A stretch of 64,000 nt of DNA from NCBI RefSeq assembly GCF_018882215.1, contig NZ_JACVOX010000001.1, forward strand, positions 124,001-188,000. Reading direction: 5' to 3'. The position numbers were made by a program, and so were the translations under genes. The notes beneath the pieces are model-generated. The model was not told where the DNA came from. It saw nothing but the letters and a program-made list of their open reading frames with translations, and did not search any database. The stretch comes from Polynucleobacter sp. AP-Kaivos-20-H2 (lineage in GTDB: Bacteria; Pseudomonadota; Gammaproteobacteria; Burkholderiales; Burkholderiaceae). How positions within the stretch are numbered: the first letter of the stretch is position 1; every line of letters begins with the position of its first letter. Below are positions 60,863 to 64,000 of the stretch, in pieces.

Positions 60863-60960
60863 TGGCAAAAACCGAATTAGTGCCAAGACTGCCCAGCTCA
60901 GGGCGCCTTAAGCGTTATGATTGCTTTATTACCCATTTTGGCAATATTAGGACAAAAGTT

Positions 60961-61662
60961 ATGAATAAAACTTACCCATCGGCAGTGGATGCCTTGCGGG
61001 ATATCTTAAAAGACGGACAAAAATTGGCTGTTGGCGGTTTTGGTCTTTGTGGCATTCCAGAGGCTTTGATTCAAGCAGTTAAGGACTTGGGTGTTCAAAA
61101 CCTCACCGCAATTGCTAACAACGCTGGAGTTGACGGCTTTGGTTTGGGTTTATTGCTCAATTCACGTCAGGTAAAGAAAATGGTTGCTTCATACGTGGGG
61201 GAGAACAAAGAATTCGAACGTCAGTATTTGGCTGGTGAATTGGAGTTGGAATTTACGCCCCAAGGTACATTGGCTGAAAAATTACGTGCCGGTGGTTGTG
61301 GTATTCCTGCTTTCTATACCAAAACTGGTGTTGGTACTTTGGTTGCTGAAGGTAAAGAAGAAAAAGAATTCGATGGCGAGAAATACATCATGGAGCGTTC
61401 AATCGTTTCAGATATTTCTTTGGTAAAAGCTTGGAAAGCAGATAAATCCGGTAACTTGGTCTATCGCTATACAGCACGGAACTTCAATCCAGTAGTTGCT
61501 ATGGCTGGCAAGATCACCGTTGCAGAAGTAGAAGAGATTGTTGAGAACGGCAAGCTGCATCCAGATGAAATCCATACGCCTGGTATTTATGTACATCGCT
61601 TGGTGCTACATAAAACACCAGAAAAGCGCATTGAACAGCGCACGATGACTGCAACAGCGTAA
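60961..61662 (+). CDS. scoA: 3-oxoacid CoA-transferase subunit A
   Basis: A 233-residue alpha subunit of succinyl-CoA:acetoacetate CoA-transferase, which activates acetoacetate. [12 protein letters not shown] and [14 protein letters not shown] are typical of Sco[25 protein letters not shown] lies near the end. The start at 60961 follows AGGA; in-frame codons back to 60880 are rejected. scoB follows after 31 bases. With hbd and phasin genes this serves PHB or ketone turnover. Confidence 0.95.
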
Positions 61663-61693: not shown

Positions 61694-62344
61694 ATGCCTT
61701 GGACTAGAGACGAAATGGCAGCACGTGCTGCTAAAGAATTAAAAGACGGTTACTACGTGAACTTGGGCATTGGTATGCCTACTTTGGTAGCGAACCATGT
61801 TCCTAAAGATATGGAAGTATGGCTTCAGTCTGAAAATGGTTTATTGGGTATCGGACCGTTTCCAACGGAAGAAACAATTGATGCGGACTTAATCAATGCC
61901 GGCAAGCAAACGATTACGACTTTGCCTGGTTCATCCATTTTCTCTTCTGCCGATTCATTTGGAATGATTCGTGGTGGAAAAATCAACATCGCGATCTTGG
62001 GTGCAATGCAAGTAAGCGAACATGGTGATTTGGCCAACTGGATGATTCCAGGAAAAATGGTCAAGGGCATGGGCGGTGCAATGGATTTGGTCGCCGGTGT
62101 TAAGCATGTTGTCGTATTGATGGAGCACGTTGCCAAGAAAAAAGATGGCACTGAAGAGCTCAAAATTTTGCCGCATTGCACATTACCTTTAACGGGTGTA
62201 GGCGTTATTAGCCAGATCATTACCGATCTTTGTGTTCTTGATATCACCCCTAAGGGTTTGAAGTTAACTGAATTGGCTCCAGGCGTGACTAAGGAAGAGG
62301 TTATCGCTAAAACAGGAGCCCCTGTTGACACAACAGGTTTCTAA
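61694..62344 (+). CDS. scoB: 3-oxoacid CoA-transferase subunit B
   Basis: A 216-residue beta subunit. Glu47 in [14 protein letters not shown] is the nucleophile that forms the CoA thioester intermediate. [11 protein letters not shown] near the N-terminus and [19 protein letters not shown] follow the family. GAAG-type Shine-Dalgarno (TTAGGAAG) precedes the ATG. Confidence 0.96.
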
Positions 62345-62379: not shown

Positions 62380-64000
62380 ATGTCGGGCTCCCATCATTTC
62401 CATTCGAAGCCATCTAAACCCCAGAATCAATCTGGAGTAGATCCTTCTCTACATGCCCATAAGAAGGGTGATGCACGGCATACCCATAGCAAGCAAGCCT
62501 CTAATCAAAACCTACTATTAATTGCCTTAGTACTGACCTTAGGTTTTTCAGGGGTTGAGGGCGCTGCTGCCTATTTCGCAAATTCATTGGCGTTGATTTC
62601 TGATGCGGGTCACATGGTGACTGATGCTGCCGCTTTGGGTTTAGCGCTACTTGCGCAGATTATTTCCCGTCGCCCACCATCTCCAAAGCATTCATTTGGT
62701 TTTGGGCGTGCTGAAGCGCTAGCTGCATTTGTTAATAGCATTGCGATGCTAGCTTTGGTGTTATGGATCGTCATTGAGGCTGTCAGTCGTTTTGCTAATC
62801 CCCATAAAGTGGATGGCTTGACTGTCACGGTTGTTGCTGCAATCGGTCTTCTGATGAACGTCGTCGTAGCATGGGTTTTATCTCGTGATAAGCAAAGTGT
62901 GAATACCCGTGCGGCACTAGTTCATGTCATGGGTGATCTATTGGGTTCAGTTGCGGCATTGATTGCTGGTGTTGTGATTCAGCTTACCGGTTGGATGCCT
63001 ATCGATGCCATTCTCTCTATTTTGGTATCGCTGCTTATTCTGAAGTCCACCATCTCGATTCTGCATGAGTCTTATCACTTCCTGATGGAGGGTGTACCTC
63101 TACATATTGATTACTTACAAGTAGGTACTGATTTAAGAAATATTCCAGGCGTACTCGCGGTGCATGATTTGCATGTGTGGGAAATGACCCCTAGCTTCCC
63201 GGCCTTGATTGGCCATATTGAAATCGCTGAGATGCAGAAGTGGCCAGAAATTATGGCCAGAATCAATACGATGCTCTTGGATAAGCACGGCATCGATCAT
63301 GTGACCTTGCAGCCTGAAGAGGTTGGTGATGACCACGATCATGAGCATGATCATTTACATCATGAAATTCATAACGAAGCTCAGGCAGCAAATGTATTTC
63401 ATGACGGCGATACCTTTTACGTAGAGTGCGCTAGTGGCGATTCCACGCATCGTATGGCCTATCACGCTTGGGGAAACCCTGGCAAAAAAGTATTGCTGTG
63501 TATTCACGGCCTAACAAGACGGGGCAGCGACTTTAAGACGCTTGCGCAGGCAATGTGCAAAGACTATTACGTGGTTTGTCCAGATATAGTTGGAAGGGGT
63601 GATTCGGATCGCTTAAGCAATCCAATGCTCTATGCTGTGCCACAGTACGTTGCTGATATTGCTGCGTTAGTTAAAAAGCTTGGCGTTGCACAAGTGGATT
63701 GGCTGGGAACTTCAATGGGTGGCTTGATTGGCATGGTGTATGCCGCAATGCCAAACTCACCCATACGGAGAATGATCATCAATGATGTGGGCCCCAAGAT
63801 TGAGCCAGAGGCAATTAAACGCCTAGGTTCTTACGTCGGGCAGCCATTTACTTTTGCAGATCGCAGTCACGCACTCCAGCGCTTGAATGAGATCTGCGCC
63901 ACTTTTGGTGAGCACACTTCAGAAGAGTGGGAAATCTATAACGGCCCCATGTTGATTCAGAAAGATGGTAAATGGATCATGCATTACGACCCAGATATCT
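62380..64000 (+). CDS. Cation diffusion facilitator fused to alpha/beta hydrolase (cut by window end)
   Basis: A continuous frame of 540 codons, open to the window edge. Residues about 1-45 are His-rich and cytoplasmic. Residues 46-230 hold about six membrane helices of a CDF metal exporter, with metal-site residues Asp75/His78/Asp82 in SDAGHMVTD and His182/Asp186 in HVMGD. Residues 230-312 are the CDF C-terminal domain. A linker rich in His and Asp (318-341) leads to an alpha/beta hydrolase, with CIHGLTRRG (oxyanion region, about 374-382) and the nucleophile elbow GTSMGG (Ser445). The acid and His of the triad may lie beyond the edge or in the unassigned part. No in-frame ATG, GTG or TTG lies in the linker, so it is a true fusion. 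Export of zinc or similar metals is a family-based inference. Confidence 0.85.
   Translation, partial: MSGSHHFHSKPSKPQNQSGVDPSLHAHKKGDARHTHSKQASNQNLLLIALVLTLGFSGVEGAAAYFANSLALISDAGHMVTDAAALGLALLAQIISRRPPSPKHSFGFGRAEALAAFVNSIAMLALVLWIVIEAVSRFANPHKVDGLTVTVVAAIGLLMNVVVAWVLSRDKQSVNTRAALVHVMGDLLGSVAALIAGVVIQLTGWMPIDAILSILVSLLILKSTISILHESYHFLMEGVPLHIDYLQVGTDLRNIPGVLAVHDLHVWEMTPSFPALIGHIEIAEMQKWPEIMARINTMLLDKHGIDHVTLQPEEVGDDHDHEHDHLHHEIHNEAQAANVFHDGDTFYVECASGDSTHRMAYHAWGNPGKKVLLCIHGLTRRGSDFKTLAQAMCKDYYVVCPDIVGRGDSDRLSNPMLYAVPQYVADIAALVKKLGVAQVDWLGTSMGGLIGMVYAAMPNSPIRRMIINDVGPKIEPEAIKRLGSYVGQPFTFADRSHALQRLNEICATFGEHTSEEWEIYNGPMLIQKDGKWIMHYDPDI

What the first reader, a model, noticed from the sequence alone, without database searches (positions are those of the whole stretch)
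62380..64000. Cation diffusion facilitator fused to an alpha/beta hydrolase through a His-rich linker
One open frame encodes a complete CDF-type exporter (TM metal sites and C-terminal domain) and then an alpha/beta hydrolase with an intact GTSMGG nucleophile elbow. The join is a linker of alternating His and Asp (residues 318-331) that looks able to bind metal. There is no stop and no start codon in the linker, so separate translation is unlikely. CDF proteins normally end after the cytoplasmic domain. A membrane metal exporter carrying a hydrolase suggests metal-gated esterase activity or delivery of an enzyme to the membrane. This is inference.
Basis: partly seen in the sequence, partly recalled or inferred. 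Interest (0 to 1): 0.75.

Follow-up and report, generated by a model that had tools for sequence, protein, structure and literature searches.

The report
Metal exporter fused to storage-polymer esterase
In most Polynucleobacter genomes examined a zinc-type metal exporter and a cytoplasmic esterase, probably one that breaks down fragments of the carbon store PHB, are encoded as one protein; the joint seems to have arisen once, and the histidine-rich linker that looked like a metal switch is not conserved.

Summary
The window cuts the gene at residue 540; the genome continues it to a 624-residue protein: CDF exporter, its cytoplasmic domain, a linker and a complete alpha/beta hydrolase. Of 91 genomes of the genus (Polynucleobacter), 71 carry the fused form, 16 carry CDF and hydrolase as separate genes, 2 have a broken hydrolase half, 2 incomplete ones give no match. 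The fused rows form one clade on a quick tree, so one origin is likely. Both halves are under strong purifying selection with metal-site and catalytic residues (nearly) invariant. The linker is not: 17-42 residues, changing His content, dN/dS about 0.65; metal gating through it is unsupported. In other genera of the family the hydrolase stands free between scoAB and relA, and in 180 genomes of the order it goes with PHA synthase. It is most likely the counterpart of Cupriavidus PhaY2/PhaZc (3-hydroxybutyrate-oligomer hydrolase), judged by position and size, not by comparing that sequence. Unfused congeners often carry a basic amphipathic helix at the hydrolase's N-terminus instead, which hints at membrane tethering. 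One strain's fusion was noted in one sentence in 2010 (PMC2894845). No protein-level evidence was available.

The parts
62380..64000 (+). Fused CDF exporter-alpha/beta hydrolase gene; 540 of 624 codons lie in the window, the stop ends 254 bases beyond it (G000:C5:188252-188254)
62515..63087 (+). CDF transmembrane domain (residues 46-236) with TM2 H78/D82 and TM5 H182/D186
   Evidence: Pfam Cation_efflux; residues present in 67, 67, 66 and 67 of 67 whole fused proteins
63103..63321 (+). CDF cytoplasmic dimerisation domain (residues 242-314)
   Evidence: Pfam ZT_dimer 38.4 bits over cut-off 26.7
63322..63417 (+). Linker (residues 315-346), His/Asp-rich in this copy, variable in the clade, low confidence at 315-335 in a model of the L113 homologue
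63418..64000 (+). Alpha/beta hydrolase domain (residues 347-624, cut by the window end)
   Evidence: last residues in L002
63712..63714 (+). Codon of nucleophile Ser445 (GTSMGG)
   Evidence: sequence; S in 67 of 67
61694..62344 (+). scoB-like gene (CoA-transferase subunit B), 35 bases upstream, same strand
   Evidence: gene name from recalled family knowledge, no family search run on it
60880..61662 (+). scoA-like gene (CoA-transferase subunit A); the ORF start is 27 codons longer than the usual 233-residue form in relatives
   Evidence: name recalled, no family search run on it

Best explanation
A CDF exporter gene came to lie between scoB and a resident hydrolase gene of a 3-hydroxybutyrate/PHB mobilisation cluster, and in the ancestor of most Polynucleobacter species the two reading frames fused once. 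The product is one inner-membrane protein: a zinc-type cation exporter, probably a dimer, whose cytoplasmic C-termini each carry an active serine hydrolase on a flexible tether. The hydrolase most likely cleaves 3-hydroxybutyrate oligomers released from PHB, feeding 3HB dehydrogenase and the CoA-transferase encoded next door. The fusion holds the enzyme at the membrane in 1:1 amount with the exporter; I found no sign that metal switches it. Shown by sequence: the joint frame, its spread, one clade on the tree, selection on both halves, intact active-site residues, gene context. Inferred: translation as one protein, dimer, metal, substrate, membrane location.
For: 624-residue frame with both domains over Pfam cut-offs. 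71 of 91 congeners fused. ScoB+RelA tree of 94 rows: 66 fused and 2 broken rows are one clade, SH-aLRT 100 (4 fused loci lacked one of the two genes and are not on it). Median dN/dS 0.025 (CDF TM), 0.066 (CDF C-domain), 0.041 (hydrolase), 0.649 (linker). In other genera of the family the hydrolase follows scoA-scoB directly in 7 fetched loci (L094, L095, L097, L098, L099, L105, L112) and precedes a relA-type gene, with no CDF hit in the stretch; in L093, L096 and L104 a bdhA-like gene lies beside it. H16_A1335 is PhaY2, D-(-)-3-hydroxybutyrate oligomer hydrolase (PMC3430594, PMC3734047; passages); its Azohydromonas counterpart is an 870-bp 'alpha/beta hydrolase' (PMC11767486, table passage); 12 of 16 free hydrolase ORFs outside the genus are 288-310 residues. 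Hydrolase and PHA synthase: 86 both, 2 hydrolase only, 37 synthase only, 55 neither, of 180 genomes, Fisher p 7e-19, not corrected for kinship. Own genome has PhaC, a PF06850 depolymerase and PHB_DH over cut-offs. In three genomes with a broken hydrolase half scoA is also disrupted, with the CDF fully open in two of them.
Against: No protein, transcript or enzyme data. Identity with PhaY2 rests on size and position (the H16 neighbours are recalled); H16_A1335 itself was not compared, and no NCBIfam equivalog reaches its cut-off for the hydrolase. 37 of 123 genomes with PHA synthase have no hydrolase at the threshold used. Start codons exist at 308 (GTG, 41 of 67), 310 (TTG, 35), 348 (GTG, 25; 4 with a Shine-Dalgarno-like 4-mer; GTA in the own copy) and 359 (ATG, 67 of 67). 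In L188 (P. necessarius PPGSP2) the hydrolase frame is open while the CDF frame is broken, hard to explain if the hydrolase is made only as a fusion, unless the assembly is faulty or decay is recent. Co-decay is three genomes, and in G022 scoA could simply start later. The ZitB equivalog cut-off is not reached (257.7 against 408), so the metal is open.
Confidence: 0.58

Rival explanations
1. Neutral fusion. Two neighbouring genes lost the stop between them in a small-genome lineage; the joint does no harm, and each half works as before. Membrane position of the enzyme has no role.
For: Linker nearly unconstrained; halves decay separately: CDF open with broken hydrolase in G016 and G022, the reverse in L188; separate genes persist in 16 of 91 congeners.
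Against: No member of the fused clade on the tree has split again; many unfused congeners have a membrane-type helix at the same end.
Confidence: 0.25
2. Metal-gated esterase: metal bound by the linker or by the CDF cytoplasmic domain changes hydrolase activity.
For: His/Asp linker in this copy and its near kin; CDF cytoplasmic domains of known members bind metal (recalled); C-domain His262, His265, His279 in 67 of 67.
Against: The His-rich linker is a local feature: L051, L084 and L087 have a single His in linker plus first 14 hydrolase residues; linker dN/dS 0.649; linker of low model confidence.
Confidence: 0.07
3. One frame, two products: the hydrolase is also or mainly made alone from an internal start.
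For: 60 of 72 joint frames (two broken ones included) hold some in-frame ATG/GTG/TTG in or near the linker, 19 with a Shine-Dalgarno-like 4-mer within 18 bases upstream; GTG348 in 25 of 67 and ATG359 in 67 of 67; L188 has an open hydrolase with a broken CDF.
Against: No linker start is shared by all; the own copy has none between codons 310 and 359; ATG359 would cut off the first strand of the hydrolase (strands 341-352 and 355-365 in the model), and such a Met is also in free hydrolases of the genus.
Confidence: 0.1

Closest known systems
CDF protein of Polynucleobacter sp. QLW-P1DMWA-1 (printed QLW-PIDMWA-1) with an MhpC-like C-terminal domain (PMC2894845, 2010; passages seen)
   Same: The same architecture in the same genus, noted as one protein in one sentence.
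   Different: The passage goes no further; spread, origin, gene context, likely enzyme identity and linker drift are added here.
Zinc-type CDF exporters (ZitB model; ZnT/SLC30 structures 9jj3, 8xm6, 6xpe; FieF)
   Same: Cation_efflux and ZT_dimer domains, conserved H/D pairs in TM2 and TM5, six TM helices in the model.
   Different: Carries a whole enzyme after the cytoplasmic domain; ZitB equivalog cut-off not reached.
PhaY2/PhaZc, 3HB-oligomer hydrolase of Cupriavidus necator H16 (H16_A1335)
   Same: Same size class and, by recall, same place beside a 3HB dehydrogenase gene and spoT2; hydrolase goes with PHA synthase in the order.
   Different: Free protein there (recalled: mostly cytosolic); its sequence was not compared here.
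Solved alpha/beta hydrolases 3bwx and 4ose
   Same: Nearest by sequence for the L113 hydrolase (2.2e-45, 5.4e-42) and by fold.
   Different: Listed without a substrate; no exporter attached.

Membership tests
CDF (cation diffusion facilitator) | Cation_efflux domain and superfamily model over cut-off | tested here: met
   PF01545 143.8 bits over 26.6; TIGR01297 265.3 over 82.35
CDF (cation diffusion facilitator) | HD-HD metal site in TM2 and TM5 | tested here: met
   H78, D82, D186 in 67 of 67, H182 in 66 of 67
CDF (cation diffusion facilitator) | Metal transport | not testable with these tools
   needs a transport assay
ZitB zinc exporter (equivalog) | NF002923 curated cut-off | tested here: not met
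   257.7 bits, cut-off 408
Alpha/beta serine hydrolase | Pfam model over cut-off and Ser-Asp-His triad | tested here: met
   PF00561 60.6 over 25.8; S445, D579, H606 in 67 of 67; D579 as the acid is inferred from its place after a strand
Hydrolase equivalogs of NCBIfam (MenH, PcaD, BioH, PHA depolymerase i_nPHAscl and others) | curated cut-off | tested here: not met
   all 22 matches of the hydrolase part alone are below cut-off
PhaY2/PhaZc 3HB-oligomer hydrolase | Orthology with H16_A1335 | tested here: inconclusive
   size and position agree; the sequence of H16_A1335 was not at hand
PhaY2/PhaZc 3HB-oligomer hydrolase | Cleaves 3HB oligomers | not testable with these tools
   needs an enzyme assay; co-occurrence with PhaC is indirect

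The most novel reading that the evidence does not exclude
The exporter is a working part of carbon-store breakdown: movement of the CDF cytoplasmic domains on metal binding positions or gates the tethered 3HB-oligomer hydrolases at the membrane, so that cytoplasmic zinc level and PHB mobilisation are coupled. A weaker form, which I hold more likely (about 0.3), is that selection in this genus keeps this hydrolase at the membrane, by the exporter in one clade and by a basic amphipathic helix in the two others.
Probability: 0.06. Interest if true: 0.75.

Novelty: new variant of a known kind. Interest (0 to 1): 0.42.

Why it matters
In print I found one sentence about an enzyme fused to a CDF exporter, on this genus. 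Here the fusion proves to be widespread in a lineage and probably single in origin, with unfused relatives and natural breakages at hand. That makes the question 'why tie a storage-polymer esterase to a metal exporter' testable in cultured Polynucleobacter by swapping fused and separate forms. It also means that an automatic name for these 600-residue proteins may cover only one half.

Tried and rejected
Sequencing error or frameshift joint: rejected, joint frame in 71 of 91 congeners. Chance open frame: rejected by dN/dS. The '924' to '951' and '687' open-frame lengths for G089, G031, G041, G026, G003 and G024 looked like three-part or long fusions; ORF calling showed separate genes. Fusion elsewhere: in the printed rows for 200 genomes of the family (22 of this genus), 369 of the class (own included) and 398 of the phylum (5 of this genus) no match outside the genus spans both domains (the row lists of 11, 18 and 41 were cut, and only a few candidates per genome were scored). 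His linker as metal switch: not conserved. Paper searches on CDF fusions: one search listed 3 papers and one search listed 25 of 1,975; of these I opened passages of PMC2864759 and PMC11580412 only, nothing on a fusion seen; one search found none; led to PMC2894845. The 2005 PhaZc paper and the 2017 SpoT paper are not held. A search to confirm the gene beside H16_A1335 failed: PMC6011247 names H16_A1334 without its function in the passages seen, one search found no paper. Amphipathic-helix score: 12 of 17 unfused N-termini are matched by at most 25 of 500 shuffles, 5 of 17 by more, and 2 of 6 in the 'adjacent' clade miss the threshold, so that clade is weak evidence; the helix in the second model has low confidence (mean pLDDT of residues 1-10 is 53); the threshold 1.34 is recalled. 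The full-length model is of the 96%-identical L113 protein and poor (mean pLDDT 62.8). dN/dS used only pairs with dS 0.1-1.5 (126 to 641 of 2211). The tree is a quick LG+G4 one with long branches among the 'adjacent' rows.

Full report
What is there. The open frame at 62380 runs off the window. In the genome it continues to a TAA after 624 codons, followed 21 bases later by a relA/spoT-type gene and then genes that I read, by recall, as thrS, infC, rplT and pheS; upstream are scoA- and scoB-like genes on the same strand (names recalled, loci compared with each other by BLAST). Pfam finds Cation_efflux 46-236, ZT_dimer 242-314 and an alpha/beta hydrolase within 371-617, all over their cut-offs. 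NCBIfam gives the CDF superfamily over its cut-off, ZitB as best exporter equivalog but below its cut-off, and no hydrolase equivalog over cut-off.

How widespread. One search covered 150 genomes, 91 of them of this genus (G000-G090, own included). Of the 91, 70 show the joint frame in one stretch (67 whole, 3 cut by a contig end), G066 shows it in two overlapping contig ends (not fetched), 10 have CDF, a bdhA-like SDR gene and hydrolase as three genes, 6 have CDF and hydrolase as neighbours, 2 (G016, G022) have a broken hydrolase half, and 2 incomplete genomes (G056, G074) give no match. One search names the genus: its 78 loci (best 80 of 98 matches kept) are titled Polynucleobacter or are unnamed Burkholderiaceae or beta-proteobacterial MAGs. 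Outside the genus no printed match spans both domains in the family, class or phylum samples.

Origin. In other genera of the family the hydrolase follows scoA-scoB directly in 7 fetched loci (L094, L095, L097, L098, L099, L105, L112), with a relA-type gene next and no CDF hit in the stretch; in L096 and L104 a bdhA-like gene lies between scoB and hydrolase, and L093 shows bdhA-like, hydrolase, relA-type, thrS. Two other genera of the family have scoA-scoB-CDF together with the hydrolase not next to them (L101, L102). A tree of ScoB plus RelA (94 rows) puts the 66 fused rows on it and two broken ones in one clade with SH-aLRT 100; the SDR-between clade (100) and the neighbour clade (99) lie outside (quick method, long branches warned of). 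The simplest course: CDF arrives beside scoB, one fusion, vertical descent.

Selection. On 67 whole fused genes median pairwise dN/dS is 0.025 for the TM domain, 0.066 for the CDF cytoplasmic domain, 0.041 for the hydrolase and 0.649 for the linker (only pairs with dS 0.1-1.5). TM2 H78, D82 and TM5 D186 are in 67 of 67, H182 in 66; S445, D579, H606 in 67 of 67. The linker is 17-42 residues; with the first 14 hydrolase residues it holds 1-9 His. The own copy is at the His-rich end of a drifting range.

One protein or two. The own linker has no ATG/GTG/TTG between codons 310 and 359. Among 72 joint frames (two broken ones included) 60 have some such codon in or near the linker, and 19 have a Shine-Dalgarno-like 4-mer upstream. 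By position in 67 whole genes: GTG308 in 41, TTG310 in 35, ATG at 317 in 16, GTG348 in 25 (4 with a Shine-Dalgarno-like 4-mer), ATG359 in 67. ATG359 is the only one shared by all; it lies inside the hydrolase, in a motif that free hydrolases share. Single translation is likely, not shown.

What the hydrolase does. Nearest solved structures for the L113 hydrolase are 3bwx and 4ose, listed without a substrate; PHB depolymerase 8ynv comes lower. Papers name H16_A1335 as PhaY2, 3HB-oligomer hydrolase (PMC3430594, PMC3734047; passages); PhaY is an alternative name of PhaZb and PhaZc (PMC3556143, passage); an 870-bp counterpart is listed for Azohydromonas lata (PMC11767486, passage). Of 16 free hydrolase ORFs outside the genus 12 are 288-310 residues, the others 332-364 with uncertain starts. 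SpoT2 affects PHB mobilisation in C. necator (PMC9049629, passage). I recall, and could not confirm, that H16_A1334 is a 3HB dehydrogenase and H16_A1337 is spoT2, which would make the loci the same. In 180 genomes of the order the hydrolase (E up to 1e-40) and PHA synthase TIGR01838 (E up to 1e-100) fall as 86 both, 2 hydrolase only, 37 synthase only, 55 neither, without correction for kinship. In the genus, 51 of 55 genomes searched have a TIGR01838 match, G016 and G053 only in pieces. The own genome also has a PF06850 depolymerase and a PHB_DH dehydrogenase, and a second CDF.

Natural breakages. G016: CDF open, hydrolase, scoA, scoB and relA broken. G022: CDF open, one stop in the hydrolase, scoA frame shifted near its start, scoB and relA open. 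G237: hydrolase, scoA and scoB broken, CDF open but with an internal gap, relA open. L188 (P. necessarius PPGSP2): CDF and relA frames broken, hydrolase, scoA and scoB open. Of the 70 fused loci, 67 have scoA and scoB open as far as the stretch shows and 3 stretches lack scoA (whose printed 68 of 73 also counts the broken L106 because of a chimeric frame and lists G022 twice). The hydrolase thus tends to share the fate of scoA, not of the CDF. This is a handful of genomes, some in general decay.

Membrane tether. Unfused hydrolases of the genus carry 41-85 extra N-terminal residues by the longest ORF (the first 11 or so may be untranslated in the SDR-between clade). A basic amphipathic window (score 1.34 or more, threshold recalled) is present in 11 of 11 of the SDR-between clade and 4 of 6 of the neighbour clade, against 0 of 64 scorable fused linkers (6 of 70 not scorable) and 1 of 9 scorable outgroup N-termini (7 of 16 not scorable); that one was not printed by name and must be L111 or L112, of which L112 is an overlong Arg-rich ORF. 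Shuffles of the same residues seldom reach the value in 12 of 17. A model of one unfused hydrolase has a helix at 2-13 with low confidence. The full-length model, of the L113 protein, shows six long helices in the membrane part, a cytoplasmic alpha-beta domain, a low-confidence linker and the hydrolase, at modest confidence, with fold matches to ZnT exporters and to 4ose/3bwx. An even number of TM helices keeps both termini on one side, the cytoplasmic one in known CDF proteins (recalled).

Known or new. The architecture was seen before: PMC2894845 (2010, passages) notes one CDF protein of Polynucleobacter sp. QLW-PIDMWA-1 with a C-terminal domain homologous to MhpC. In the listings of paper searches, and in the other passages I opened, I saw nothing on its spread, origin or function; the library lacks most subscription journals. 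I rate it a new variant of a known kind.

Noticed in passing
L033-L036, L039-L044, L107: In one clade a bdhA-like SDR gene sits between CDF and hydrolase, and the longest hydrolase ORF overlaps its end by 34 bases.
   Followed up: partly
L188:4001-5835: P. necessarius PPGSP2: CDF and RelA frames are shifted while the hydrolase half, scoA and scoB are open.
   Followed up: partly
L049, L052, L106: Hydrolase half and scoA are both disrupted in these three genomes; the CDF is fully open in two.
   Followed up: partly
L101, L102: Two other genera of the family have scoA-scoB-CDF adjacent without the hydrolase next to it.
   Followed up: no
L050:1-18001: In G145 (another family) a 62% identical CDF lies on the other strand just before thrS, 4.7 kb after hydrolase-relA: the CDF may have moved within this neighbourhood.
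   Followed up: no
window 60880-61662: The scoA-like ORF starts with GTG 27 codons upstream of the 233-residue form usual in relatives.
   Followed up: no
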